Below are positions 4,645 to 62,640 of a DNA stretch of 64,000 nt, one piece after another. This stretch comes from Schistocephalus solidus (Eukaryota; Platyhelminthes; Cestoda; Diphyllobothriidea; Diphyllobothriidae): NCBI GenBank assembly GCA_017591395.1, contig WEDG01000322.1, forward strand, positions 121,654 to 185,653, written 5' to 3'. A model generated the notes under the pieces. That model searched no databases. It was not told the origin of the DNA and saw only the letters and a list, made by a program, of their open reading frames with translations. The stretch's first letter is position 1; every line of letters begins with the position of its first letter. The translations under genes and the position numbers were made by a program.

Positions 4645-4850
4645 CCCAACGTATTCTTGTAGATGAGTCTTCTCCATAAATAATAACCCAGGGCACCCAC
4701 ACCTGCGGACGGGTATGGCTAGCTGACGAGGGATACTGCGCCAGAAATGAACACAGTCTTTGTGGTATTCGTCGGGACTCACTTTCATTAAGGCACTTCG
4801 ATGTAGTGCTCCGTGCTAATGTATCGTTTAGTATCAGTTTTTGACTGCTT
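4645..4850 (+). mobile_element. Diverged copy of the tRNA-derived SINE (body portion)
   Basis: The segment around 4700-4775 aligns by eye with the body of the SINE seen at 10601 and 49453. Shared landmarks, in order, are a GGGTATGG block, GCTGACGA, GCCAGAAATG, and the GTCTTTGT / TCGTCGGGAC block. The tRNA-like head is hardly recognisable. It represents an old insertion of the same or a sister SINE family. Confidence 0.5.
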
Positions 4851-10578: not shown

Positions 10579-10599
10579 TATATATATATATATATATAT
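10579..10599. repeat. (TA)n microsatellite bordering the SINE cluster
   Basis: Uninterrupted TA run directly abutting the tandem SINE at 10601. Confidence 0.95.
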
Positions 10600-10600
10600 G

Positions 10601-10990
10601 AAATGGAACCGACAAAGACAAGGGAGACCGGAATGGCCATTTCTGGCTTATAAGCCGTCATCAGCCAGTCATACCCAATCCCAAGTGTGGCACACCTGGG
10701 ATTCAAACCCGCAACCTTTGTTATTTGATTCGAACGCTCTACCATTGAGCCACGGGCTCGTTGTTTTGTCGGTTGTGATCGGGAATACGATGATAGTGTG
10801 GGGCTCACCGATCAGCTTAATGAACATGCATGTTCCGTTTTGTCCTGGAGCTCAGACTAGAGCTCTCGCAGGCGGTCGCATAGCGACATTTAGCATATGA
10901 TGAAATGGAACCGACAAAGACAAGGGAGACCGGAATGGCAATTTCTGGCTTATAAGCCGTCATCAGCCAGTCATACCCAATCCCAAGTCG
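10601..10990 (-). mobile_element. tRNA-derived SINE, about 1.3 head-to-tail units
   Basis: On the - strand the unit runs: a tRNA-like head with a Pol III A-box-like GTGGCTCAATGGTAGAG and B-box-like GGGTTTGAATCCC; a body with GGCTGATGACGGCT and GCCAGAAATGGCC; a TTGTCTTTGTCGG block; and a tail ending GAGCCCCACACTATCAT. The body reappears 302 bp away (10671 and 10971 share the same TCATACCCAATC text), so this is a partial tandem dimer, not a single SINE. There is no coding capacity. The same family occurs at 49146-49705, with older relatives at 4645, 16350, 26060 and 45186. (TA)n tracts lie at both ends. Confidence 0.85.
10687..10760 (-). other. tRNA-like head of the SINE (Pol III promoter boxes)
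   Basis: A- and B-box-like blocks are spaced as in a tRNA. The acceptor arms and the T-stem do not pair fully and no anticodon arm can be drawn, so this is a SINE promoter head and not a functional tRNA gene. Confidence 0.75.
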
Positions 10991-11028: not shown

Positions 11029-11078
11029 GCTGATAGAAGCGAAGATGCGTGTCCCCGGACATAAATGAAAAGAAAAGG

Positions 11079-11282
11079 CGATCTCAGGGACTATAGGTGT
11101 ATTGTCCTGACGTTTCAAAATCATACAAGCTTCCATCGTCGGAGGTGAGTATCGTACCACGTCTCACAGTATTTATAGGGGGTGATAGCCATTTTTGTAA
11201 CAGCGTTGATTGGACGGGTTTACCTTAACAGTGTACACGATAGGAGTACGGGGTTGGGAAATCCTTAATTGGCTTTGGCGTT
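11079..11282 (-). repeat. Penelope terminal repeat, right-hand (3') copy, with hammerhead-like core
   Basis: On the - strand it reads CCCTATAAATACTG, then CCGACGA, a GGAAGC stem arm and GAAAC. It is the inverted partner of 12601-12803. The hammerhead core has C at the second position where U is required (CCGACGA), so it is probably dead. The helix III and cleavage triplet could not be placed cleanly. Confidence 0.65.
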
Positions 11283-11312
11283 CTTTGCCGGCATACACAC
11301 AGGAAATTGCTG

Positions 11313-12782
11313 TTATTTGACATGTCTCTGGTTGAGGGGGGCGGCCATTGTCTGGGTCCGCATTGACCTCAATTGGCGCCCTGGGTCGATAGTCATGTTT
11401 GTGTCCTGAGGGCATGCCTCCTCGTCTGTCGTGGTAGTAATTGATGCGGCGGTAATCATGACTGCGCGTTCGTCAGCCCCGAATTGTGGCGTGGTTAGGT
11501 GCATATCCGTCCTAGGTTCTTCAGCGGTGGAATTCGTGTTTGGCCTAATGACGTGTTTGCTCTTACGTACGATGAGCTTCGTCCGGAGGGCCTGGTAGGC
11601 TGCCGTAAGGGCGACACAACGGTTGATCGACTTAGGCTCCGTGTGCCAGGCTTCGATTGTTTCCCTGGTTACGCGGTCATTTCCTCGACCCAGGATTTCG
11701 GCGTTTTGGAAGGCGAACGTGTGCCCAGAGTTAGCCCAGTGTTCCGCCACCAGGGACAATGGGTCCATTCTCCTCACTGCCCGCACATGTTCGGTAACAC
11801 GGGTCTGCAACCGCTTCCCTGTCTCTCCGACGTAGTTAACTTCACAGGAGTTACATTGGATCCGGTAGATGATGTTTGACGTCTCACCTCGTGGAATGGG
11901 GGCTTTCGGTCTCATAACTAGATTCCGAATGGTTGAATCCGGTCGATGGGCGATTCTGATCCCCAGCGGTCTGAGGAGGCGGGAAACTGCCTCAGAGACG
12001 CCGTCAATGTATGGCAGTGCACGCCAGACTTTTGGCTGTTCTGTTACCAGATTTCGTCTTGGTTTGGCCAGCCTGCTGCGCTCGATGAAGTTGCGAGGGT
12101 ATCCGTTGGCCATGAAAAGGTGCTGGAGGTAGCGGAGTTCTGCCCTTTTGTCATCCGACTCGCTGCAATGTGTTTCTGCCCTTCTATAGAGAGCTCGCAC
12201 ACAGCAGCGTTTGTGGCACAACGGGTGCTTACTGTGGTAACTTAGAATTTGGCGTGTGTTGGTCGCCTTCCTATAAGCCGTAGTTTTTATGTGCCCGTTG
12301 GATTTTCGATGGACAAGAACATCCAGGAATGGCAGTTGGTTGTTAATTTCGGCCTCCATTGTGAATTGGATGTCCGAGAAGATGGAATTCAGGACACTAT
12401 GGAATTCTTTGATCATTTCTCGTTTGATGATGACGAAGGTATCGTCGACGTATCGAGTCCAAAACGTTGGCCTGTAGTTTGCAAAAACCAGAGTCTCAAG
12501 CTTTTGGAGAACTGCCTCAGCGATTAAGCCCGAGAGCGGCCATCCCATTGGTGTCCCTCTGATCTGCTCGTACATGGTCCCCTCGAAGGGGAAGTACGCC
12601 AAAACCAAAGAAGGACTCCCCCACCCCGTCCTCCTATCGTGTACACTGTTAAGGTTAACCCGTCGAATCAACAATGTGTTACAAAAATGGCTATCACCCC
12701 CTATAAATACTGTGAGACGCGGTACGATACTCAACTCCAACGATGGAAGCTTGTATGCTTTTGAAACGTCAGGACAATACAC
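11313..12782 (-). CDS. Penelope-like RT / GIY-YIG fragment (489 residues)
   Basis: An uninterrupted - strand frame. Residues 1 to about 62 are a readthrough of the inverted terminal repeat and not real protein, so the Met at 12782 is not a natural start. Element protein begins near residue 63: an RGTPMGW...LSGLIAEAV block (RT motif 4; W replaces the usual S), then YVDD (catalytic motif C) near residue 112, LPFLDVLV, and a thumb/connector region. A GIY-YIG endonuclease follows near residue 310, with NIIYRIQC, NYVGETG and RLQTRVTEH. Known Penelope-like elements couple this RT to a C-terminal GIY-YIG nuclease for target-primed insertion. The upstream RT motifs, including the first catalytic aspartate, are missing, so the product should be inactive. 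The single intact frame suggests a fairly recent insertion. Confidence 0.88.
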   Translation of the reverse strand: MYCPDVSKAYKLPSLELSIVPRLTVFIGGDSHFCNTLLIRRVNLNSVHDRRTGWGSPSLVLAYFPFEGTMYEQIRGTPMGWPLSGLIAEAVLQKLETLVFANYRPTFWTRYVDDTFVIIKREMIKEFHSVLNSIFSDIQFTMEAEINNQLPFLDVLVHRKSNGHIKTTAYRKATNTRQILSYHSKHPLCHKRCCVRALYRRAETHCSESDDKRAELRYLQHLFMANGYPRNFIERSRLAKPRRNLVTEQPKVWRALPYIDGVSEAVSRLLRPLGIRIAHRPDSTIRNLVMRPKAPIPRGETSNIIYRIQCNSCEVNYVGETGKRLQTRVTEHVRAVRRMDPLSLVAEHWANSGHTFAFQNAEILGRGNDRVTRETIEAWHTEPKSINRCVALTAAYQALRTKLIVRKSKHVIRPNTNSTAEEPRTDMHLTTPQFGADERAVMITAASITTTTDEEACPQDTNMTIDPGRQLRSMRTQTMAAPLNQRHVK

Positions 12783-12803
12783 CTATAGTCCCTGAGATCG
12801 CCT
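12601..12803 (+). repeat. Penelope terminal repeat, inverted left-end copy, with hammerhead-like core
   Basis: On the + strand it carries CCAACGA (12737-12743), a helix II GGAAGC / GCTTTT with loop TTGTAT, and GAAAC (12763-12767). Two core positions differ from CUGANGA. It lies antisense to the element's own coding direction. Confidence 0.65.
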
Positions 12804-12812
12804 TTTTCTTCT

Positions 12813-12816
<4 letters not shown>

Positions 12817-12842
<26 letters not shown>
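12817..12842. repeat. (TA)n microsatellite between Penelope-like element and hammerhead array
   Basis: Uninterrupted TA run shared as the border of both elements. Confidence 0.95.
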
Positions 12843-12843
<1 letters not shown>

Positions 12844-12880
12844 GGCAAAGACGTTATACCGTACTTCCGACATAGATACT

Positions 12881-12970
12881 AGCTAAAAGCCCAGACACGT
12901 GTTTTGCCGATGTTTCTGCTGCTGTGTAACACAGCAACGAGGGGTTCGGCTCCTCAGTGGGTCCCCAGCG
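12881..12970 (-). ncRNA. Hammerhead ribozyme, array copy 1 (defective core)
   Basis: It has the same fold as copy 2, but GAAA of the core reads AAAA (G12 to A, at about 12905). Loss of G12 is expected to abolish catalysis. Helices I, II and III are otherwise preserved. Confidence 0.8.
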
Positions 12971-13234
12971 TTCTCTATGCGGTTTCTGGTATATGGACTC
13001 CAGAGAATAATCGGGTAAATAATTTCTGAAATAATTAAGTGCAGGACATGGAGTCAGGTGATTCGGACATGACATTTTTAGGGTCAGATCCGAAATTTCA
13101 ATGAACATTTGGGTCGAAGACAATCAACCACTGTGGAATAACCACGTAATGCCCATTCTACAAACAAGTAGTACTACAAGTAGTATGAATCTTATATGGC
13201 AAAGACGTTATACCGTACTTCCGACATAGATACT

Positions 13235-13324
13235 AGCTAAAAGCCCAGACACGTGTTTCGCCGATGTTTCTGCTGCTGTGTAACACAGCAACGAGGGTTC
13301 GGCTCCTCAGTGGGTCCCCCAGCG
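13235..13324 (-). ncRNA. Hammerhead ribozyme, array copy 2 (intact core)
   Basis: Read 5'-3' on the - strand, the fold is: a helix I arm with GCT, a G run, then CCCA; core CTGAGGA; a helix II arm GCCGA; a large terminal domain with its own 9-bp hairpin (GTTGCTGTG / CACAGCAGC, loop TTA); the TCGGC arm; core GAAA; helix III AC / GT closed by ACGT; cleavage triplet GTC; and helix I TGGG, CTTTT, AGC. Helix I pairs CCCA with TGGG, then G with T wobbles, then GCT with AGC. This is a type I (open helix I) hammerhead with the minimal helix III typical of retroelement hammerheads. Cleavage is predicted 3' of C17, whose complement is at 13248. Confidence 0.9.
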
Positions 13325-13587
13325 TTCTTTATGCGGTTTCTGGTATATGGACTCCAGAGAATAATCGGGTAAATAATTTCTGAAATTATTAAGTGCAGGA
13401 CATGGAGTCAGGTGATTCGGACATGACTTTTTAGGGTCAGATCCGAAATTTCAATGAACATTTGGGTCGAAGACAATCAACCACTGTGGAATAACCACGT
13501 AATGCCCATTCTACAAACAAGTAGTACTACAAGTAGTATGAATCTTATATGGCAAAGACGTTATACCGTACTTCCGACATAGATACT

Positions 13588-13678
13588 AGCTAAAAGCCCA
13601 GACACGTGTTTTCGCCGATGTTTCTGCTGCTGTGTAACACAGCAACGAGGGGTTCGGCTCCTCAGTGGGTCCCCAGCG
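13588..13678 (-). ncRNA. Hammerhead ribozyme, array copy 3 (core insertion)
   Basis: As copy 2, but GAAA is followed by one extra A (GAAAAC instead of GAAAC). This adds a nucleotide at the helix III junction and probably weakens or abolishes activity. Confidence 0.8.
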
Positions 13679-13942
13679 TTCTCTATGCGGTTTCTGGTAT
13701 ATGGACTCCAGAGAATAATCGGGTAAATAATTTCTGAAATTATTAAGTGCAGGGACATGGAGTCAGGTGATTCGGACATGACTTTTTAGGGTCAGATCCG
13801 AAATTTCAATGAACATTTGGGTCGAAGACAATCAACCACTGTGGAATAACCACGTAATGCCCATTCTACAAACAAGTAGTACTACAAGTAGTATGAATCT
13901 TATATGGCAAAGACGTTATACCGTACTTCCGACATAGATACT

Positions 13943-14033
13943 AGCTAAAAGCCCAGACACGTGTTTCGCCGATGTTTCTGCTGCTGTGTAACACAGCAAC
14001 GAGGGGTTCGGCTCCTCAGTGGGTCCCCCAGCG
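13943..14033 (-). ncRNA. Hammerhead ribozyme, array copy 4 (intact core)
   Basis: CTGAGGA, GCCGA / TCGGC, GAAA, the ACACGTGTC helix III and triplet, and the CCCA / TGGG helix I are all present. With copy 2 it brackets copy 3, so a transcript cleaved at copies 2 and 4 would release a dimer-length RNA if copy 3 is inactive. Confidence 0.9.
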
Positions 14034-14233
14034 TTCTTTATGCGGTTTCTGGTATATGGACTCCAGAGAATAATCGGGTAAATAATTTCTGAAATTATTA
14101 AGTGCAGGACATGGAGTCAGGTGATTCGGACATGACTTTTTAGGGTCAGATCCGAAATTTCAATGAACATTTGGGTCGAAGACAATCAACCACTGTGGAA
14201 TAACCAGGTAATGCCCATTCTACAAACATACAA

Positions 14234-14243
14234 ATATATATAT
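14234..14243. repeat. Short (TA)n tract at the far end of the hammerhead array
   Basis: ATATATATATA immediately after the last, shortened unit. Confidence 0.8.
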
Positions 14244-14244
14244 A

Positions 14245-33389: not shown

Positions 33390-35445
33390 TCTAAATTTCC
33401 GATGGTCCATTCTCAGGATCATGGAGAAAGCTGCTTGGGAAGGAAGAGGAAAATAAAAAGGTTAATTGAATCAATGTTAAAATAAATGTGCAGTCTTTGC
33501 TTAAATTAGATAGGGTAGTTGATAACCTTATATCGATTGGCAGGTTATTTCAAAGAAAGAAATACCTGGAAGCAAAGAAAAGACAGCGTTTAGATGAAGA
33601 GGATATAGTTGGAGGTATAATTAGTGAATAACGTAGGTTGTATGGAGGACTAACTGGAGTAAGGGCTGGAATTTGGGGAATATTATAACTATTATTAAGA
33701 CGGAAAAGGAGGCAGAAGCCAGTTTCCAGTTTTCCAAATCCATTGACATTTTAGGTTAGATAGCTGGCACATTTTTATGAGTAGGAGGTGGTTAAACGTG
33801 CCAGAGGTAGGTGTTTCGGAGTAAAATATCTTTGAAACTTTTCAATTTTTGAACGGTCAGACTGTCATTAAACCAAAAAATGGGCAATAATGTTCAAGAT
33901 TGGGAAGGACGAATATTCGATAAAGTCTTAATTTAATTTCAGGAAGATAGAAATTAAAAGATATAAAGCTACAAATCTGGGCAGCTTTGGCCGTTATTCT
34001 ATCGACATGAGGCGACAGATCTTATTTATTAGTGTAGCTTAAACCTCAGTCCTTGATTCTTGAACATTCAGTCAAAGGGGTGCCTTGAAAAATAACTGGT
34101 TGTGTTAATCTGTCAAGACCGAAGCACATACAACTACACTTAAAAGGTTAAAATTCCATATGGAACGTTTAGCTCCGCGCGGAAAGAGAATACAATTTTG
34201 CATGGATTTCTTGTAAGCATCGTTGGGCCGAAGATTTAGAGAAGAAATCTACGCATTTAAGATCTTCCGCGTAAATAAAAGCTTTAGACTGTTTAACTGC
34301 TGATGAAATATCATTACTTTTAATCAAAAAAAGATGACCTAGCAAGGTGCCTTGAAGGACAACGTTTACAATAGGGGTCTCAGCTGAAAATGAGGACCCC
34401 ACAACTACAATTTCTTAACGATTAGTTAGATATGACGTAATTAAATCGGTAAAGGGGACAACGAAGTCCTAGAGCTTCTAACTTAACTATGAGTCTCCTA
34501 CGAGGCCCTTTATCGAAAGACCTTGCTAAGATCAAAATAGATAAGGACCACATAAAGAAGATATATTTATAGATTTAGAAAAGACAGTTAGCTTTTTCAC
34601 AAGGTAGGAAGCCATGTTGCGAAGTGCTAAGAAGTTGATTGGTTATACAGAAATCTGTAATTTTATGGAAATACGTTTTTCAAAGAGCTAAGCAAGAGAA
34701 GGTGTTTTATGAACACTGCGATAATTGTGAAACATCCGAGCGTTAGCCAGATTTAAATACTGAAATAATAATCGAGCTTTTTTAATAATCAGGAAAGAAA
34801 CCATTCTCGAGAAAAACTGAGAGTACTTTGCTCAGAAGGGGCAAAATCACTTAGCTATTAAATAAAGGAATATGGGATGTTGTCAGTTCCAACTGAGTGT
34901 GATTGATTAAGTTGATTTATCTGTTTCTGAATATTTGTAGGTAAGAAACCAATGTTAGTGAGCAACTCAGGTGGTGCCAGGTGAATCAAAGGAATGGGAT
35001 CGGTTTCACGGGTAAAATGCTTGACAAAGAATGAATTTAGCAATATTGCTTCGTCCAAATCCCTCTGTCATGAAATTATTATTGCAATCAAGTAAGAGCA
35101 AAATGACATTTTGAGATTTGGCGTAAGGACGGGGGCGTAACACTTGAGCAGCAGATCTGGAAGTATTATCATCGCTAATTGCTCGAGACTCCCTTTGCCT
35201 ATTTCGCGCAATCCTCATTTTTTAAGCTTATTAAATATTTGTGCAAACCTTATGTGGACGGATAACGAACTTTTGGACGGATCCTTAAGCTGTTTTTGTA
35301 ATATTTTAAGTCGATTTCGTAGAAAGTGTGGGACCATGGAAGAGACAGCATTTGATATAAAGTTTGGTAGTGGAATGAAATCAAGGCCTTCTGTTAGGCC
35401 CTGCAATGTATCGTGGAAAAAAATAAGATCATTATTTGATAAAAT
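33390..35445 (-). pseudogene. Decayed CR1/Jockey-like LINE, EN-RT linker to 3' end
   Basis: In gene sense: a linker region (VHIRFAQIFNKLKK...RNRQRESRAI); RT N-terminal text LENGFLPDY and STSQHGFLPCEKA; LIYFDLSKVF (motif A); a GTLLGHLFLIKSNDISSA block (motif B); FIYAEDLKCVD (YADD box); and SPHVDRITAKAAQICSF thumb text. Many stops and frameshifts. The 3' part (33400-34160) is similar to 61250-62050, a second copy of the same family. It abuts a Gypsy fragment at about 35445. Confidence 0.8.
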
Positions 35446-38352: not shown

Positions 38353-38385
<33 letters not shown>

Positions 38386-41300: not shown

Positions 41301-44300
41301 CCACTGACTAAAATTTGACCCTTTTGGGCATCGTGGTAAGCAAAGGGTTTGGGTGGGTTTAACCGTTTTGTTCACTCATAAAGGCGTGTTTTCTAGAACT
41401 TTTCAGCCCTTAAACGCATTGCTATTTTACTTTACCTGAGAGTTAAGACCCGTAGGATCTGCTAGGGCCTAACAGGCGATTCGATTGGACAAGCCTTTTT
41501 TATATTTCACTAGTGCATTCCATCGTGGCACGAAACACCAAACACTGCCGAAGGCGTAACTTTATATGATCAATCGATTTCTGCTTCCCGTAGCACACGA
41601 TGCTGAGCGATTCGACCGAATCGCCGTCCTCTGTGAGCAGCGCCAACGCAAAGATATGCGGAAGCTGGACCAATCGTTGAATGAATTTCGTTTCCTGCAT
41701 CAACAGCCGCAGAGTCGTCGAGAATTTGACCTTTATGACCCCGACGCTTTGAAGAAGGATAGACCCGCCCGGGTAACTGATGACGATCCCCGTTGCGGTG
41801 TCTCCTCAATGCAGAAGTTTATGGGTGAGGATCTAACCAGGCAGTCCCGCAACAAGTACCAAAGGGAACAGATGCAGGACTGGTTTGAACGCCAGATTGA
41901 AGAGCGTGAGTCTGCGGAGGCTGCGTACAAAGAGGCTAATAGGTCAGTGATATTTCTGTGGACTGCACGGTGGAGGGCTTTCTGTAAGACCAATTGTATT
42001 TATTTACTACCTGGGGAAAAATCTACACTAGCATACAGTCAATGACTGACCTAACGGACAAATCCTGAAATTACGTACGAGGGCCTGCAATATTTATTTC
42101 CTTGCAGCCTAATCCCACGATATGTCAAACATGCTAAAAGGTGGACTTTTGAATGCACGTCATTTAGGCCGCGTGAAGACCCCACTTATTAATAAAATGC
42201 TTACTTAATCAGTCTTATGCTTTTATTTATTTTCAATGGTCGTATGAATCTAAATCTGCTTTGTAAAAAACGCAAGTAAAAATATTCTTTCCTGTAATCA
42301 TGTGTTAGAAAATAACGTTTTCGTCCACTAGTATTTTCAAAAGCAGGGTATATTGAGGTTTTTAAAAGATTTTTATCTACGAGGCATATCTGCCGTCACA
42401 TTGACGTATAAACTTTTCAGTTTGTACACTGAAGACTTTGCCATTTAAAAGATGCCATACATAGCTCCTGAATTTTTACAATGGGTGAAGACTACGTTGT
42501 AATGTTTAAGAGGTAAATAAAAAATGGACTAGTACAGGGCTATGCGAATGGACATATTACGCTTTTAACAAAGCTCAAAAATAAGATACTTTTCAAAACA
42601 GAAATCTATCCTTTCTTTAGATATAAATTTTAATAAGTTATTGGCCATCAAGTGAACACCACATTGTGCATGTTATCTATAAAATCGGTTTAACATTAAG
42701 ACGGCATCTTTAATATATAGAAACATTGTGTATTACTCAAAGAGCCCGTTATTACAGAATGGACTCAAAGTGGACATCTTGGTGTGTCTTAAATACGATG
42801 TGAGTATGCCTCATATTTATCAGTGTTCCAACCGCATTCAAGTAATACTTCTTAAACTAAAACACATACCAGAAGTTCAGATAACAATTCTGGAAATCTG
42901 TTATTGACTGAGCAGGCTTGGCTGCGTCTCACCTTACCACTACTGCCCGGTGTTCACGTATACGGTCAGAGAAAGATGGATTGTTTGTTGCAGCCACCGT
43001 AGCCTGTATCACAACGTGCGAAAAGTAATTTTCCATATCATTTCTTTTATATTTAAAGTCAACCCCGGCTCTAGAGCCTACCAACTAATCGCAACCAGTG
43101 GCGTCAGATGAAAAATATGCGATCACTGGAAAAAGACGTTTATTGGTCTAGCGTTTCGGATTGTTGCTCAAACCCATCATCAAAGATATTATCATATAAG
43201 GGTAATAGAGGTAGTATTTATAGGGCATGACCACAGGCGTTCTACAATTAGCAACTCTCACAATCACCACTGAGGGTCGTAATTGATGCAATGATGACTT
43301 AGCAGTTCGCGTGTGAGTTGTAAATGGCTGCGATTTCATCATCCGTGTTGGATGTTGGCGTGATAATTAAGCGGCAATTTGGCTCGCCTTCGATGGAAGG
43401 ATTGGTCTCCGCCACCCTCCCCACGTGACCGATTCTCTTGCTCAGACAAAGTCTCAGCATAGAACATGGGAACGGGAGGTCATTTCGTTTTTGGACGAAC
43501 TGCAGTTCTGAGAACCATGACTTGAACAGCCCGTAGCCCACTCGTCATCGTTGATCCGATCACAGCGCACCGTGTCCAAACAGCTCACTGATAGAAGCGA
43601 AGAGGTGAGCTCCACAACTGCCTCTGATGATGGGTTCGAGCGAGAATTGGAAACGTTGGGCCAACTAAACGTCTTATTCTAGTGATAGTATCTTCTCCCT
43701 TCTGAATCGCCTCCTAGAACCCGCCTGTTCGCGTTTATCAACACAGTGGTTTGTGTTTTACGCGCTAGCTGTCTCTGGGGTTTTCTGCACCTATCTTCCA
43801 GCGAGCTGACTTCAGCCATCTACATTGGTATCAACGTGGCAAGAGACTTTGTCTTTATACCTTTATGTTCCGTCCTAGAGTTTATCAAGGTAGTTGTGCA
43901 GTAGAAACACCGGTTTTCCGAAATAAGAAAATTTACATATGGTGTTTATAGATTCAGCTGCACCATTATGCAAACCCAGTTAAGCTCTTTATTCCCTGAT
44001 CATCGTCAAATCATTCTAAACCGCTAACGGTTACCTGAAACCTGCTCTTATAAAGGAATAAGCTTTTGAATTAGTGTACTCTCTGCAGAGTTTCGTTACA
44101 ATTACGACGAAAGTAATAAAAAACCAATTTAATGCAACTTGCAGGTGTGAGCTAGGAATGAATATCAGTTGCATAAATAAAAAGGGAACCGAAGCAATTT
44201 AACTATTCGCCCGTCAAATACGTTTTAATACGGCAAAGATACAAAACGTGTAATGGTTAATGCTGTTAAATTGGGAGGTCTCTTTTTCAACTTAGAGCAG

Positions 44301-47300
44301 CTGCTACATAGTTGGAGCTGTAGCTGTTCAAAACTCTTCATGCAGCAACGTCTATTGGCAGATTGTGGCTGAATAGCGGGTTCCAAAATTCGATATCGCT
44401 GATAATTACTGTTTCCTTCACGAACGAGATAGTGCTGTCTTGTCCACTTATATGTCTCCAATGAATGACCAGTCAAGTAAGCTGTTTGCTGTGACAATTG
44501 CAGCGGATTTCACTCGCCATTAATCGTGCCTGTTGTTGACAATGTTTTGTCAACACGTTAAGATAATGTTTGCTTCCTCATTTCTTAAGGATACTACAAG
44601 GAATGACAAACGCAGAACAGAAAACGCGGACGCCATGCTGCGAACTGTCGGTTTTTGTAAGTAGCTGTGACGTGAATAGGGTACTTAAAGTCAGACGAGA
44701 ACTTGGTGAAGCAATCTAAACAATTCTTTTAAAAAGACGATAATTTCACAAAAAAGACCTCGACGAATCGTTTTTACGCATAACTTATTCTTGCGCAGAG
44801 TGAAGCTTATGACATAAAATCACGCAAGACTGGTTTGTCAAAAACGTGGTTAGTTACTGACTGAATGAAAAGGTTAATCGTTTAAAAATGGTCGCAGCCG
44901 TATTTGCTGAACAACCGGTTGTTAAAAACCGGTGTTCCAGTTAAGCCACCTCTTCTGTATTTAAATGGAATACGAGTTCGTTAAGTTACCTGGATACAAA
45001 TCTTATTGAACTTACAGTATTCTAACAATTATTTCTACTAACCCACATATTTGACTAAGTTACATAGTGAGATAAACGTCAAGGCCTGACGACAACTTAT
45101 CGAAATCTAACTTACGTTCACCAACTTGTCTTTATGTATTTTAAAAATTACTAGCGATTATTTTTCCTGATCTTAACTAGCAAGACAACGAGCACGTGGC
45201 TCAATGTTTAGGCGTTGGACATCTGGGTCAATGGGGCGCGGGCTCGAGCCTCATAGGGTTCAGTATGGCCAGGTAATGACAGCTAATGTGCCAGAAATTG
45301 AGATTTCAGTGTTCCTCGTCTTTGTCGGCATTTGTACATCTTCCTCTGCTACTACTAGCTGCTTTGTGCAGCTGCTGGCGGGGCTCGAGAGTGAGCCCCA
45401 GGGCAGAACGGAAGGAGTCAGTTTCGTTAGCGATCGGTGAGCATTCATCAACGAAGTATGAAGATACGTCACTAATTTGCCGTGTCTGGTGTCGCAGTGT
45501 GCCGCCACGGAGACTCCATAAACAGCATTGAATAAATAAATTGGTTTAAGATACCTCAGCAAATATGTCCTGGCTTGAAAAATTTGTTATGCATTCGTGC
45601 ATGTAGGCTCTATGACCTGAAACGCCGAGAACTGGATCAGCGTGCTTGCGAGCTTGCTAAGGCTGAAGAGCAGTGCAAGCGTGCAGTCAATACAGCTCTG
45701 CGCCATTACAACGAAGTTCTCGCAGCCGAGCAGGCTGAAAGAGCTCGAATAAAGAAACAGCATGACGAGGACGACAATGCGACTGAGATAGCCAATTGTA
45801 TCTACAGTGATCTCTTGACTGAGAATCCGGCTCAGGCTACTTCAGCATTTGGCCCGCATCGAATCTGTCCTGACAGATACAAAGGATTGACACAGGAACA
45901 GTTGGACCATATTAGGAAAACGCAACAACTTCAGATTGAAGAAAAGAAGGTATGTGTCTGGAATAAGTTAAACGCATTCTAAGACATTTGCCCAGCATCT
46001 ACTGACGGTTTGAGGGGAATAGTTCGGTTTCTTTGTTATTGCAGTCCATAAGTACGTTTCGGTAGGCTATCTACCGATCTATTTATTAATACATGGTCAA
46101 CAGGAGAGTCTCTTTGTTACACCTTTGCCCTTCACCCTAATTTCTGCTCCTGGTGACAGGTGTTCATGGAATCTTTGTAGGATCGTTAGAATAAATGCTA
46201 GAATGTAACTAATAGCATGCTTAATTAAAGATGCTTTACTTTAGATTTTAATCACTCCGACGCTGGAAGGTTTATTCAAATGAGCCTCGAGTGAGTGAAG
46301 GATTGATTACATTGGCATTTGTTGCCCACAGCGCTTAGCACTTTTTGAAGTCTACTTCATTGAGACTTCGTTTTCTCACAAATTTTACTTATCTTCGATT
46401 GTTTCAGGTTGATGTTAAAAACAGACTAGAGGGAGAGGAATTGCTCCTTTATTTTAGTCCGAGTGAACCTCTGGTTTAAATGCATGTATAACCTGCGCAT
46501 TCAGCGGAGAAGGGAGTGAAAGACACCCATTTAATTTATAATTTGATAACTTACTGTAAAAACAGTCTTTAGTATGATGTTGTTGACTTTAGTTTTAATA
46601 CTTGTCGTTATCTAGCGCCTAAAGGCAGAAGAGGAAGAACGTAATCGTGAGTGGGACTGCCAGCGAGTGAATTCCAACAAAGTGGGTATCTTGATTGAGC
46701 GTCAGATGGAGAGGGCAGCCCGAAATGCACGCGAAAAAATAGCTCAGGAGAATTTGCGCCTGGCCCAAGACCAAATGGCTTTCCAACAATACCTGAAGGA
46801 CGAGGTTGGTGACGTTTTTATTAACATCAGCTCTTTAAGGTTGCGTGCTCAGCTCTTTAAGGTTGCGTGCTTGTTGCGAGTCCACCATCACTGAGTCTTT
46901 GTATATTCACGTCTAGGAATGGTAGTGCATATCTTGTTGCAGCTTCATGTGTAAATTTTATAGCTGGGAAGACCCCATTCAGACTCTGGTGCAATTGCTC
47001 AACGTCACAAGTCTTTATGATAACGAATGTGTCATCTACGTAGCGGAGCCACATCTTTGGTTTGAAACGTTGTAAGACGCCTTCTTCTAGTCGCTGAAAG
47101 ACTAGTTCGGCAAGTAGCCCCGGTATTGGAGAGCCCAATAGGGTGCCCTTAACTTGTTGATAGTATTTCCCATCGAACTGGCAATAGTTCTTAAGGCAGA
47201 GTTTAAGCATGTCTGAAAAGTGCTGCTTTGGAATGCCGTATGGATTTCCCTCTAGGCATCGCTCTATGCTGTCAATGGTCAAGTCGTGCGGTATAGAGGA

Positions 47301-50300
47301 AAACAGAAAAACAACGCCGAACGATACAATACATTCGTCAGGACATTAACTCCTGGAATTTTCTGTAAGAATGCCTGCGAGTTTCTAACTCTGTATTGTG
47401 ATTCATCACTGAGGTGCGCTAGGTTCCTCTATAGCCATTTGGCAAGATTTTATGTCAGGGATCCAATAAGCGGTACTATGGTCCTCAATGGTGCATCTGT
47501 TTTGTGCACCTTTGGAAGGTCATATGCCTGTGCGACACGGGGGTCACTGAGGATCATAAATCTGGAGTCCTCGGGGCTAATGAGTTTCAATCGAGAAAGT
47601 TCGTTCACTTTCTTCTTTTCAACCGCTGCCTGCTTTTTCATTGGGTACGCATCAAGTGGGGTGTACGCTTTCCTGTCATTGAAGATCTGGTTTGCCTTTT
47701 TGACGTATTCGGTCTTGTCCAGGATAACAGTCGCGCCACCTTTATCCGCAGTCACAATGACTATACTTTATCTGTTTTCGGTTATTTTAATCCCCGCGCT
47801 TCCTCGATTATTAAGGTTTGATTATATTTGCTTTTCCGAAGGAAACCAGTGGCGCAGCTACGTATGTTCAGCCGTATGTCCTCGGGGACGGTGGGGATCA
47901 GCAGAAGGGATACAAGATTGGCTAGGAAGTTGCTCGGTGTAGCATCGGCATGGCTGAATTTTATTCCTTTAGAAAGGAGGTTTATTTCAGCGGATGTTAG
48001 ATTCCTTCCGGAAAGGTTAACAACCCTCGTTGGCATGCTGTTTTCATTTGTAGAACGGAGAAAAGATTTGAGTTTCTCTTGTAGGTCAGTTCGTTTCTTC
48101 ATTCTGGCGTCCTTGGTGGTGGCAATTATCCTTTATAGTACTTTTTCAAATAGGTTCCCGGGTACACATGAAAAGCACTGGTTATTAAGGTCAGCAATTG
48201 TGGCTTCGAAACGGCAAATACGATGGTGGACATCGGATATAACGGCACTCAAAACGCGGAATCCATATTTTTGTGCGAGTTGTTTTCCAGTCTCATTGGG
48301 TAGAGTGGGCTTGAATCGAAGTGACTTCGGAAGGATACCGCGATCGTGACAGCGGTGGAGGAGGAAACTTAGTTGTTCATAAGTCGTCGCCTATCTCTGT
48401 GCGAATTTCTCCCAACGTCTGGTAAGGATAAGCGTTTGACGCCCATAAATATGTTGAATAACGGAGGTGATTTGCATCCCGAGATAGTATAATGAAAAGA
48501 AAAATGCTCTTCGGGAAATGGAGTTGTACTCGTATATTTTCAAGTTGGTGACATCAACCCATCGTCAGACGAAATGAACAGAGGATAAAGTCAAGTAGTG
48601 CGAGTGTGATCCTTAGCACATCAGTGAGTGTCATGCACTTGTTTGATTTGTATATACCTCACTGCTGTAGGCATATGGCGTACTGATGATCGGTAACAAT
48701 TGTGAAACAGCTGTCTACGTCTTGCCTGTGGCATCTTTAGCAACGTATGTGTGCATTATATTTGGCGTGTGTTTTATAACACAACGTTCGTTTATCGCCA
48801 GTGGCTAGCTGGCGGGTGGGCAGACAGAATGAGATCGAAAGCGATCCTAACCATATCAGTGAGTGTCATGCATTCGTTTTACTTGTATATACCTCACTGC
48901 ACAATGCATATGGCGTACTGATGATCAGTAGCAACCGTGAACAGCTGTCTACGTCTTGCCTGTTGCATCTTTAGCAACAAACGTGTGCATTATATGTGGC
49001 ATATGTCTAATGACACAATGTTCGTTTATCGCCGGTGGCTAGCTGGTGGGCGGGCGGACAGAATGAGATCGAGTGCGATCCTAACCACATCAGTGAGTGT
49101 CATGCACTTGTTTGACATACATACATATATATATACATATATATATGATAGTGTGGGGCTCACCGATCTGCTTAAGGAACATGTATGTTCCGTTGTGCCT
49201 TGGAGCTCAGACTAGAGCCCTCGCAGGCGGTCGCATAGCGACGTGTAGCATATGTTGATAAGGTGGAACCGACAAAGACAAGGGAGACCGGTATAATGGC
49301 CATTTCTGGCTTATTAGCCGTCATCAGCCAGTCATACCCAATCCCAAGTGTGGCACACCTGGGATTCGAACCCGCGACCTTTGGTATTTGAGTCGAACGC
49401 TCTACCATTGAGCCACGGGCTCGTTGTTTTTGTCGGTTGTGATCGGGAATATGATGATATGCTACACGTTGCTATGCGACCGCCTGCGAGGGCTCTAGTC
49501 TGAGCTCCAGGGCACAACGGAACATACATGTTCCTTAAGCAGATCGGTGAGCCCCACACTATCATCATATTCCCGATCACAACCGACAAAACAACGAGCC
49601 CGTGGCTCAATGGTAGAGTGTTCGACTCAAATACCAAAGGTCGCGGGTTCGAATCCCAGGTGTGCCACACTTGGGATTGGGTATGACTGGCTGATGACGG
49701 CTAATATATATATATATATAAAGGCATGTCCGAATCACCTGACTCCATGTCCTGCACTTAATAATTTCAGAAATTATTTACCCGATATATATATATATAT
49801 ATGTGTGTGTGTGTACAAATTTCATAGAAAATGAGGATTACAAATGACGTTTCTCGGATTTTAAAAGTGTGCTTGCTGCATCCTCAGATCAAAGTTAAGT
49901 ACGAATAGCCTGCAACAATCTGTTCTGATTAAACATCTGAGTTTTATTTTTCCGCGGTTCTCTCATGACAGAAAAGAAAATATAAAGTATACATTTAGTC
50001 TTAGGTTAATTTCAGTAAAAGCTCTTTAAAAATTACTATAGAAAATTTAGCTGATATTAACAATAATTGAGCGTAGTTAAATTCAAAGGAATTTTATAAG
50101 GTCAATTGCCTTTCGAGTTTATCAGCTGCCATGAAATCACCCAAAGACAATCGCTTAGGCTTTTTTCTCTTACAGTTTTTCACATCGTTTCGCAGCCGGC
50201 CTAAACATCTTCATTGGTACCTGAATTTGAAAACCTGGATTGAACCTCAGTTTTTAATACAAGTATCTTCCCTTTCAAACTTGTGAGAGAAGAGCTATTG

Positions 50301-60690: not shown

Positions 60691-61245
60691 GGAACATTTC
60701 TTTATGTTTATTATTTTCATCCGGGTCTCGCCCTCTCCCATAATTACCATGTGGAGGTTCCCGATGTCTTCCCTGCTTAACTATCGGCACACCTTGGTAA
60801 CAACGTGAGTTTTCACATCAGCCGAACCTGGTGGCCATAGTCCATGTGGTCTAAGAACTTTCTCCCTTGGTTTGAACCGCAACGGACCGAGGATGATCTG
60901 GGTGGATATTTCTGCCTTTTAAATCACTCAGCGGATTCTGCAACCAGCAAAGGGGAGCTTCGGGCTGCATCTTGCGCACTCTGGTGATGATCCAGGTGAC
61001 CTGCACGATGCCCCCGTCCCCCATCTCCAAGGGCGACAGTTTTTTTCTCCTAAGTGTTTATTTTTTTCACTGTCTGCTCTTTTTTTCATCTATGTTCTAC
61101 CCAGTTGGCTCATATCAATTGGCCTCGCAAACATCCCGAGATAATACTTTTTGATACCACAACTCGCATGTTGAAAAAGCGAATTCAAAGGTAACTCACC
61201 TATATCTCCCTGAAATATACTGAAACTGATTCCCGATGGTCCTTT
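60691..61245. other. Spacer between LINEs, possible unknown repeat
   Basis: A GC-richer block (60830-61035) with text such as GGTTTGAACCGCAACGGACC stands out from the AT-rich background and may be a further repeat. No class could be assigned. Confidence 0.35.
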
Positions 61246-61249
61246 CTCC

Positions 61250-62640
61250 AACTCATGAAGAAATTTTCTCGAAAAAGATGAAGAAAATCAAAGATTAATA
61301 TCAATCAATGTTAAGATGAATTTGCAGTCTTTGCATGAATGAAGATAGACTAGTTTACGACCTTATTTAAATTGGCAAGTTATTACAAAGAAAGCTATAC
61401 TTCGAAGCACATAATAATTAGCATGTAGATGTGGATGATGCAGGAGGAGGTATAATTAGGGCTGAAATTCTTAGGTTATAAGAAAAACTAACGGGGGTAA
61501 TGACAGAAAACTTGGGAAGATTTCAGCTATTATTAAGTTGAAAAAGGAGAAAAAAACTGCTTCCAGTCTCCTGACCCGAATAAATTTTAGCCTTGTCAAC
61601 TGGCATCTACCTGAGTAGGAAGTATTCGGAAGAGTTGTATACAGGAGTTTTTTGTGAAATGTCTTTGTAAATTTTCAATTTTTTAAGGGGCTAGATTCGT
61701 ACACTTAACTGAAGAAAGGGCAACAAAATTCAAGAATGGGATGCACAAACATACGATAAAGTCTTCACTTTAATTCAGGAAGGTAGAAATTATAAGAAAT
61801 GAAGTCGCAAATCTGAGCAGCTTTGGTCGTAGTTCTATCGGCGTGAGGCGAAAGATCTTATTTATTGGTGTTCAAACCCTAAATGAAGGAAAATTCAATC
61901 ATAGGACTTCCGTTAAAAGTAACTGGTTGCGGCAGCCTTACACGCCCAAAACACATGTACTGACACTTACTAGGTGAGAACTGCGTTATCAATTTGGTGC
62001 TCCACGCCAAAAGAGCGTCTTTGTCCGAATGAATTTGTTCTAGGCATTATTTGGTCATAGAATTAGAGAAGAAATGTTTAACTATAGATCAAATATAATT
62101 CATGTAAAGTAAGAACAACAAAGGACCTTACACGGTACCTTAAACGACACCACTCTCAATCGGGGTAGCACTTGCGTATGAGGAACCCACTTAAACTTTT
62201 CGTTATCGATCAGATAGGTATGATCTAATAAAGTCAGTAAGGGGACTACGAAATCCTATAGTCTCTAGTTTAGCTAGGATTTGTCTATGAGGCACTTTAT
62301 CCAATGCCTTCCTTAGATCAAAATAGATAACTGCTACAGATAGATAATCATTATGAAGAGAGGTTAGTAGAAAAGACATATGGCAGGTTTCAGAAGAGCG
62401 GTCCGGTTAAAATCCATGTTGGTAAGAGTTTAGAATTTGATTACTTATGCAAAATTCCGTAATGTTTTTGCAATTAGCTTTTAAAAGAGTTTAGCAAGAG
62501 AGGGCGTTTTATGAACAAAGTGATGGTTATAAATGTTAGAGCTGGAATTTAATTTAAAAACTGAAATTCTAATAGAAGTTTTCCAATAATTGGGGCGGAA
62601 ACCTTTTTGAAAAATACTGAGAAGAATTTTCTCAGTAAAG
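61250..62640 (-). pseudogene. Second copy of the CR1/Jockey-like LINE seen at 33390
   Basis: The 3' part (61250-62050) aligns with 33430-34160. RT text in - sense: IFQKGFRPNYWKTSIRISVF, TPSLAKLF.KLIAKTLRNFA, AVIYFDLRKALDKVPHRQIL (motif A) and LTDFIRSYLSDNEKFKWV. The YADD box region is lost to mutation. Stops are frequent. Confidence 0.8.

What the first reader, a model, noticed from the sequence alone, without database searches (positions are those of the whole stretch)
12841..14228. Four-copy 354-bp tandem repeat encoding a complete type I hammerhead on the - strand
Seen directly: four near-identical units of 353-355 bp, each with CTGAGGA, a GCCGA/TCGGC helix II with a 9-bp inner hairpin, GAAA, a minimal AC/GT helix III, a GTC triplet, and a helix I of CCCA/TGGG plus a wobble run and GCT/AGC. 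All elements of a natural hammerhead are in the right order and spacing. Known: animal repeats with this design give self-cleaved monomers that are ligated into small circRNAs, and schistosomes have a hammerhead satellite. Inference: this is a non-autonomous retrozyme-like RNA mobilised by a Penelope-like element. The enlarged, hairpin-bearing helix II terminal domain looks unusual, since helix II of retroelement hammerheads is usually short.
Basis: partly seen in the sequence, partly recalled or inferred. Interest (0 to 1): 0.92.

Follow-up and report, generated by a model that had tools for sequence, protein, structure and literature searches.

The report
Tapeworm hammerhead retrozyme beside Penelope element
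A stretch of DNA, likely from a tapeworm, holds four near-identical 354-letter repeats, two of which keep all the core parts of a self-cutting RNA (a hammerhead ribozyme); together they are likely a small jumping RNA copied by a neighbouring kind of mobile element, and the DNA around them suggests how such RNAs would find their landing sites.

Summary
The tandem array is real: 3.9 units of 353-355 bp, 98% alike. Each unit carries a type I hammerhead motif on the - strand, with an intact core in 2 of 4 copies; one lost G12, one has an extra A. Rfam Hammerhead_1 finds all four only below its gathering score of 34 bits (22.8 for the intact copies, 16.3-16.4 for the broken), likely because loop II carries a hairpin insert. 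A strict scan finds these two sites and none in 300 shuffles. The host is likely a diphyllobothriidean tapeworm. The array abuts a 5'-truncated Penelope-like element (PLE). The window also holds a second hammerhead array, SINE-like blocks with a hammerhead-like motif, and a separate 70-bp piece of the 354 unit. Ten of 12 ends of these six elements lie within 25 bp of a (TA)n tract, against 0 of 32 ends of other repeats; adding a second PLE fragment and three diverged SINE-like stretches makes it 10 of 20. Best reading: a metazoan non-LTR retrozyme, likely mobilised by PLEs into (TA)n sites. A new member of a known kind. Cleavage and circles are untested.

The parts
12841..14228 (-). 354-bp tandem array, about 3.9 units (retrozyme-like element); left edge ambiguous by 2 bp
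   Evidence: TRF; copy alignment
13875..14228 (-). Copy 4 (variant A)
13520..13874 (-). Copy 3 (variant B)
13167..13519 (-). Copy 2 (variant A)
12839..13166 (-). Copy 1 (variant B), lacks the last 28 nt of the unit
13944..14032 (-). Type I hammerhead of copy 4, core intact; predicted cleavage 3' of C at 13956
   Evidence: Rfam RF00163 22.8 bits (gathering 34)
13589..13677 (-). Hammerhead of copy 3, extra A after GAAA
   Evidence: Rfam 16.4 bits
13236..13323 (-). Type I hammerhead of copy 2, core intact; predicted cleavage 3' of C at 13248
   Evidence: Rfam 22.8 bits
12882..12969 (-). Hammerhead of copy 1, G12 changed to A
   Evidence: Rfam 16.3 bits
12818..12843 (.). (TA)n tract at the 3' end of the array, shared with the PLE1 edge
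14234..14244 (.). (TA)n tract 6 bp beyond the 5' end of the array
11065..12815 (-). Penelope-like element PLE1, 5'-truncated, between inverted repeats of 221-224 bp (pseudo-LTR-like)
   Evidence: self-BLAST; relatives
11313..12782 (-). PLE1 open frame, RVT_1 and GIY-YIG matches (both below Pfam's curated cut-offs)
11106..11146 (-). Hammerhead-like minimal motif (CCGACGA ... GAAACGTC) in the 3' terminal repeat of PLE1; one base off CUGANGA
   Evidence: sequence
49717..49786 (+). Separate 70-bp piece of the 354 unit (from outside the ribozyme) between two (TA)n tracts
   Evidence: 97% over 70 bp; tracts; place in unit

Best explanation
It is a four-unit tandem array whose units carry a type I hammerhead motif (core intact in two of four), and it is likely a non-autonomous retrozyme copied from RNA by Penelope-like elements and inserted at (TA)n sites. 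Inferred working: a transcript of the - strand would cut itself 3' of GUC in the units with an intact core; the pieces would be closed into circles by a host ligase; a PLE reverse transcriptase would then copy the circle (or a multimer) several times round, starting at a nick that a GIY-YIG endonuclease makes in a (TA)n tract, where the target's TA end could pair with the AUAUA at the 3' end of the inserted sequence. Shown by sequence: the repeats, the two intact cores, the neighbouring PLE, the (TA)n tracts at the ends. Not shown: transcription, cleavage, circles, use of a PLE.
For: Array and hammerhead order; strict motif 2 real, 0 in 300 shuffles; Rfam Hammerhead_1 on each of 4 copies when searched closely, lower in the two with broken cores. 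Helix III is the 8-nt self-complementary ACACGUGU; the 234-bp array (ACAGCUGU) and the SINE-like motif in its best copy (AUGGCCAU) carry other 8-nt palindromes at the same place. Published amphibian motifs with a weak, palindrome-capped helix III work better as dimers (PMC7229834, results part 2). PLE next door with RT and GIY-YIG matches and inverted terminal repeats. 10 of 12 ends of six hammerhead, PLE or unit-derived elements lie within 25 bp of a TA tract of 5 or more units, 0 of 32 ends of 16 other repeat segments; in all 64,000 circular shifts of the 12 ends, 6 or more coincide only at shifts of -27 to +39 bp, around the real position. The 3' end of the array is GCCATATA followed by (TA)n. 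A PLE protein from Anolis cuts AT-rich DNA (PMC11167929, passages). The unit has a piece at a second site between TA tracts.
Against: No Rfam match at gathering score. Two of four cores are broken. RNAfold prefers another core pairing by 1.4 to 3.2 kcal/mol in the four copies, though in the intact ones helix II and nearly all of helix I stay. In circular folds of three whole units helix II forms in 2 of 3. PLE1 itself is truncated, so another PLE copy would have to act. In the Anolis PLE, hammerhead mutants inserted RNA as well as before, no reads began or ended at the predicted cut, and copying started at a site not homologous to the cut DNA (PMC11167929): this speaks against a need for the ribozyme and against my TA-AU pairing step. 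The TA test was made after the tracts were seen; at the first threshold tried (6 or more units) 7 of 12 ends passed. Left out of the 12: three diverged SINE-like stretches and the second PLE frame, none near a tract; with them 10 of 20 pass. No relative of the unit was found outside the window, but the DNA collections searched are viral and prokaryotic. The host genome could not be searched.
Confidence: 0.68

Rival explanations
1. A DNA-level satellite: the unit carries a relic hammerhead and the array grew by unequal crossing-over or slippage, with no recent RNA step.
For: Copies 4 and 2 share two differences (A at column 191, G at 200) against copies 3 and 1 (G, deletion), an ABAB order that duplication of a dimer would give. 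Two of four cores are broken.
Against: A piece of the unit sits about 35 kb away between (TA)n tracts, as do ends of other hammerhead elements; a dimeric circle copied twice would also give ABAB.
Confidence: 0.23
2. The hammerhead repeats are the pseudo-LTR of PLE1 itself, that is part of the autonomous element and not a separate one.
For: The array lies directly upstream of PLE1 on the same strand with only a (TA)n tract between; PLE pseudo-LTRs are known to carry hammerheads (PMC7761336, passages).
Against: PLE1 has its own inverted terminal repeats with a different, minimal hammerhead-like motif, and the 354 unit shows no similarity to the 3' one.
Confidence: 0.06
3. A chance hammerhead look-alike in an ordinary tandem repeat.
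For: Rfam scores stay below gathering.
Against: 0 of 300 shuffles hold the strict motif; a second tandem array with another hammerhead of its own lies in the same window.
Confidence: 0.03

Closest known systems
Metazoan non-LTR retrozymes (Cervera and de la Pena 2020, PMC7229834; abstract, results parts 1-2 of 3, discussion read)
   Same: Tandem repeats of 150-450 bp, GC below 50%, a type I hammerhead per unit, short helix III with tetraloop, PLEs in the same genome; the paper states that platyhelminths have such repeats.
   Different: Loop II holds a 9-bp hairpin insert here (38-39 positions skipped in the Rfam alignments shown); shared (TA)n ends with a PLE are seen at this locus; expression and circles untested.
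Schistosoma SMalpha / W-elements with hammerheads (PMC8490949, passages)
   Same: Flatworm repeats with hammerhead motifs; the paper reports functional evidence for some.
   Different: No sequence comparison made here; other host class. The SINE-like blocks of this window look nearer to that kind than the 354 unit does (judgement, recalled).
Minimal hammerheads of Penelope-like elements (Cervera and de la Pena 2014, not held; known through passages of PMC7761336 and PMC11167929)
   Same: PLE-linked, type I.
   Different: Those lack helix III nucleotides and sit in pseudo-LTRs; the 354 unit has a helix III and no similarity to the PLE1 3' repeat.
Amphibian and axolotl retrozymes (PMC7229834, results part 2)
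   Same: 330-353 bp units, short helix III with tetraloop, better activity as dimers; the 234-bp array here has a U-U at the base of helix II as described for HHR_Amex2.
   Different: The 354 unit has a hairpin-bearing loop II; that those of amphibians are short is recalled.

Membership tests
Type I hammerhead ribozyme | Conserved core CUGANGA ... GAAA ... UH in type I order | tested here: met
   2 of 4 copies intact; copy 1 lacks G12, copy 3 has an extra A
Type I hammerhead ribozyme | Three helices can pair | tested here: met
   helix I 11-12 bp, II 5 bp, III 2 bp with palindromic tetraloop can be drawn in each copy; not the minimum-energy fold
Type I hammerhead ribozyme | Score at or above the Rfam gathering score (a library threshold, not a biological feature) | tested here: not met
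   22.8 at best against 34
Type I hammerhead ribozyme | Self-cleavage | not testable with these tools
   needs in vitro transcription
Metazoan non-LTR retrozyme | Tandem units of about 150-450 bp with a type I hammerhead each | tested here: met
   core intact in 2 of 4
Metazoan non-LTR retrozyme | GC below 50% | tested here: met
   0.43 in three units
Metazoan non-LTR retrozyme | Non-autonomous, no coding capacity | tested here: met
   longest open stretch in the array 89 aa, no relatives found
Metazoan non-LTR retrozyme | Lacks LTR, PBS and polypurine tract | not tested
   no search was made for these
Metazoan non-LTR retrozyme | Target-site duplication when present | tested here: inconclusive
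   (TA)n and GTATG on both sides, but mostly microsatellite
Metazoan non-LTR retrozyme | Dispersed multi-copy in genome | tested here: inconclusive
Metazoan non-LTR retrozyme | Linear and circular RNAs | not testable with these tools
   needs RNA
PLE pseudo-LTR hammerhead | Unit is part of PLE ends | tested here: not met
   no similarity of the unit to the PLE1 3' terminal repeat

The most novel reading that the evidence does not exclude
In this tapeworm one Penelope-type machinery serves a whole guild of hammerhead RNAs: two unrelated tandem retrozymes, a hammerhead-bearing SINE-like element and the PLE itself, all landing at (TA)n by pairing of AU-rich RNA with a nicked TA repeat; the 354 array records two turns round a dimeric circle (ABAB), and its present-day transcript would release a 708-nt dimer, so retrozymes here would travel as dimers.
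Probability: 0.22. Interest if true: 0.72.

Novelty: new member of a known kind. Interest (0 to 1): 0.45.

Why it matters
Which enzyme moves animal retrozymes is open; PLEs are named as a strong candidate in print (PMC7229834, discussion). Here a retrozyme array, a PLE, a second hammerhead array and SINE-like blocks with a hammerhead-like motif share a rare landmark, (TA)n tracts at most of their ends, while other repeats of the window do not. That turns the question into a genome-wide count that can be made on any diphyllobothriidean assembly, and would add tapeworms, with a hairpin-bearing loop II, to the range of retrozyme ribozymes.

Tried and rejected
Rfam at gathering score over the whole window: nothing. 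A 16-base core pattern in viral contigs gave 6 hits; aligned to the array they share 16-25 bases each, E 0.02-0.07, taken as chance. A 29-base pattern of the unit in viral contigs and a 24-base one in prokaryote contigs gave nothing; a 36-base pattern of the SINE-like motif in viral contigs gave nothing. The longest open stretch of the array, 89 aa, has no protein relatives. Idea that the array is PLE1's own pseudo-LTR: rejected, no similarity to the 3' terminal repeat. Idea that the 354 unit, 234 unit, SINE-like element and PLE repeat share sequence: one 9-base match only, taken as chance. First energy estimate of the intact copies' hammerhead fold (-23.1 and -22.6) misplaced a bulge; corrected to -29.8 and -29.3. 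Rfam does not list a hammerhead in the 10.4-11.1 kb SINE-like block at E up to 10 and lists the 234-bp array only weakly (15.9 bits, E 3.2; 15.3 bits, E 0.18). tRNA origin of the SINE-like block: Rfam tRNA 14.5 bits, E 6.4, and ARAGORN finds no tRNA gene in the window, so not supported beyond resemblance. Literature: hammerhead with Fasciola (4 papers) and with tapeworm (3 papers) listed none on tapeworm retrozymes by title or abstract start; the two broader searches list only 20 of 6,249 and 15 of 51, and none of those listed is on tapeworm retrozymes by title. All 34 papers that hold 'retrozyme' were listed: no title names a flatworm; most were seen as listing only. Subscription papers are mostly not held.

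Full report
What is there. Tandem Repeats Finder gives one array at 12839-14228, period 354, 3.9 copies, 98% matches. Aligned on the - strand the units start 354, 355 and 353 nt apart, and the last, 328 nt, lacks 28 nt. The predicted cleavage sites (3' of GTC) have C17 at 13956, 13601, 13248 and 12894, spaced 355, 353 and 354. Outside the missing end the copies differ at nine alignment columns. Two of these pair copy 4 with 2 and copy 3 with 1 (columns 191 and 200), an ABAB order; the other seven are private. Pairwise differences are 2 (4-2), 5 (4-3, 3-2, 3-1) and 6 (4-1, 2-1). The grouping is clear for 4-2 and weak for 3-1, because private changes in copies 3 and 1 hide it.

The ribozyme. In - strand order: GCT and a wobble run, CCCA, CTGAGGA, GCCGA, an insert with a 9-bp hairpin (GTTGCTGTG-TTA-CACAGCAGC, one G-U), TCGGC, GAAA, C-ACGT-G, TC, TGGG, CTTTTAGC. 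This is type I: helix I is open. The core is intact in copies 4 and 2. Copy 3 has GAAAA. Copy 1 has lost G12. In the intact copies helix I has one more G and can close as 12 pairs with one bulged A; in copies 3 and 1 there is an A-C mismatch. A strict scan finds the two intact copies only, and none in 300 shuffles. Rfam: nothing at gathering; Hammerhead_1 at 22.8 bits for copies 2 and 4 and 16.4 and 16.3 for copies 3 and 1, against a threshold of 34; in the 1.7-kb search only copy 2 was listed. The alignments shown skip 38-39 positions in loop II, so the insert is a plain reason for the low score (inference).

Folding. The hammerhead structure lies at -29.8, -26.9, -29.3 and -27.0 kcal/mol in copies 4, 3, 2, 1, and the free minimum at -31.9, -28.4, -32.5 and -28.4. 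In the intact copies the minimum keeps helix II and nearly all of helix I and pairs ACUG with CA and GU in place of helix III. In circular folds of three whole units, helix II forms in 2 of 3. Such energies leave out the tertiary contacts of a hammerhead, so this neither proves nor excludes activity, but fits a weak helix III. The eight bases ACACGUGU are self-complementary, so two hammerheads could pair through them. Published amphibian motifs with a weak, palindrome-capped helix III work better as dimers (PMC7229834, results part 2).

Host. The PLE frame next door matches 1017 proteins; the 37 best of the 120 listed are from Spirometra erinaceieuropaei or Sparganum proliferum, the first three at 82, 85 and 79% identity over 69, 48 and 85% of the query, and the 38th is from Schistocephalus solidus. 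Three joined exons of a RIB43A gene at 41.6-46.8 kb are 88% identical to Spirometra sp. Aus1, 84% over 64% to S. erinaceieuropaei, and 60% to Mesocestoides corti. So the host is likely a diphyllobothriidean tapeworm (the order is recalled) other than those listed. In Sparganum and Spirometra, Penelope elements make some 10% of the assembly (PMC8166898, table passage).

The Penelope-like element. Frame 11313-12782 on the - strand matches the second half of RVT_1 (E 6e-5, 23.2 bits, cut-off 29.6) and part of GIY-YIG (E 0.006, 17.3 bits, cut-off 22.6) in Pfam. It begins inside the RT domain, so this copy is 5'-truncated. It lies between inverted repeats 12592-12815 and 11065-11285, 91% alike, as pseudo-LTRs of PLEs can (recalled). 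In the 3' repeat, - strand, a hammerhead-like minimal motif reads CCGACGA ... GAAACGTC (11106-11146), one base off the core rule. The 354 unit has no similarity to this repeat.

Other elements in the window. A 234-bp array at 48608-49116 (2.2 copies, 86%) has on the + strand CGTA-CTGATGA-TCGGTAACAATTGT-GAAA-CAGCTG-TC-TACG within 48669-48727; its second copy has lost one A of GAAA. It is antisense to the PLE frame at 46857-47345. A SINE-like element at 10594-10988, with related blocks at 49145-49706, carries GACTGG-CTGATGA-CGGCTTATAAGCCA-GAAA-TGGCCAT-T-CCGGTC on the - strand at 10626-10670, a variant at 10928-10972 whose helix III is no longer a palindrome, and one with three extra bases at 49286-49333. 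Its helix II has a mismatch at the base; Rfam lists no hammerhead there at E up to 10 and a tRNA only at E 6.4; ARAGORN finds no tRNA gene. A 70-bp piece of the 354 unit (97%) lies at 49717-49786 on the + strand, about 35 kb from the array; it covers unit positions 168-238, before the ribozyme core at 291.

The (TA)n ends. The window has 11 TA tracts of five or more units. Eight lie at ends of six elements (354 array, 234 array, 70-bp piece, PLE1, two SINE-like blocks). Ten of 12 ends are within 25 bp, where 1.06% of the window lies, and 0 of 32 ends of the 16 other segments of the self-comparison. In an exhaustive circular shift of the 12 ends, six or more coincide only at shifts of -27 to +39 bp; all other shifts give five or fewer. 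Limits: the test was made after the tracts were seen; with six or more units 7 of 12 ends pass; neighbouring elements share tracts; it is one window. The left end of the 234 array and the left end of PLE1 (38 bp away) do not pass. I had left out three diverged SINE-like stretches (4697-4749, 45164-45219, 45263-45442; 69-77% alike) and the second PLE frame, whose true ends I do not know; none is near a tract, and with them 10 of 20 pass. One of the control pairs (43114-43185, 43622-43694) itself holds a hammerhead-like motif. The array's 3' end is GCCATATA then (TA)n, and the unit itself reads GCCATATAAG there: the target's TA end could have paired with AUAUA of the RNA and primed copying (inference). 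The flanks also share GTATG next to the TA tract, which would be a target-site duplication if real. A purified PLE protein from Anolis cuts AT-rich DNA and starts copying inside its RNA, but at a site not homologous to the cut DNA, and its hammerhead was not needed for insertion in vitro (PMC11167929, passages). The first point supports the target choice; the other two speak against my pairing step and against a need for the ribozyme in the insertion step itself.

Mechanism. I hold that the array is a non-LTR retrozyme moved by PLEs. RNA cutting, ligation and PLE use are inferred from published systems, not shown here. With copies 4 and 2 intact and 3 and 1 broken, a transcript of this locus would be cut at 13956 and 13248 only, giving a 708-nt piece, a dimer. 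The lesions in copies 3 and 1 differ, so they likely arose after the array formed and cannot by themselves explain the ABAB order.

Novelty. Retrozyme-like repeats in platyhelminths are stated in print (PMC7229834). I found no paper on tapeworm retrozymes among those listed in the held library, which lacks most subscription papers. So: new member of a known kind, with an enlarged loop II and a testable lead on mobilisation.

Noticed in passing
48608-49116: Second, unrelated tandem array (234 bp, 2.2 copies) with a + strand hammerhead (within 48669-48727), palindromic helix III and a U-U at the base of helix II; its second copy has lost one A of GAAA.
   Followed up: partly
10594-10988 and 49145-49706: SINE-like element with a hammerhead-like motif (10626-10670, 10928-10972, 49286-49333); tRNA resemblance not significant; the blocks at 49.1-49.7 kb form an inverted repeat.
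   Followed up: partly
43622-43694 and 43114-43185: Short repeat pair; the first holds CTGATGA ... GAAACGTT with a 4-bp helix I, resembling minimal PLE hammerheads; its ends are not at (TA)n.
   Followed up: no
46857-47345: Second PLE reverse transcriptase frame on the - strand (RVT_1 below cut-off), just downstream of a RIB43A exon.
   Followed up: no
41560-46815: Exons of a RIB43A (RIBC2-like) host gene on the + strand, 88% identical to Spirometra sp. Aus1 (third exon read by eye).
   Followed up: partly
33395-34835 and 61229-62635: Long diverged repeat pair (67% over 1.47 kb), not identified.
   Followed up: no
38353-38374: (TA)n tract next to a short inverted repeat (GTTTGCATAAC ... GTTATGCAAAC), one of three tracts not at a hammerhead or PLE end.
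   Followed up: no
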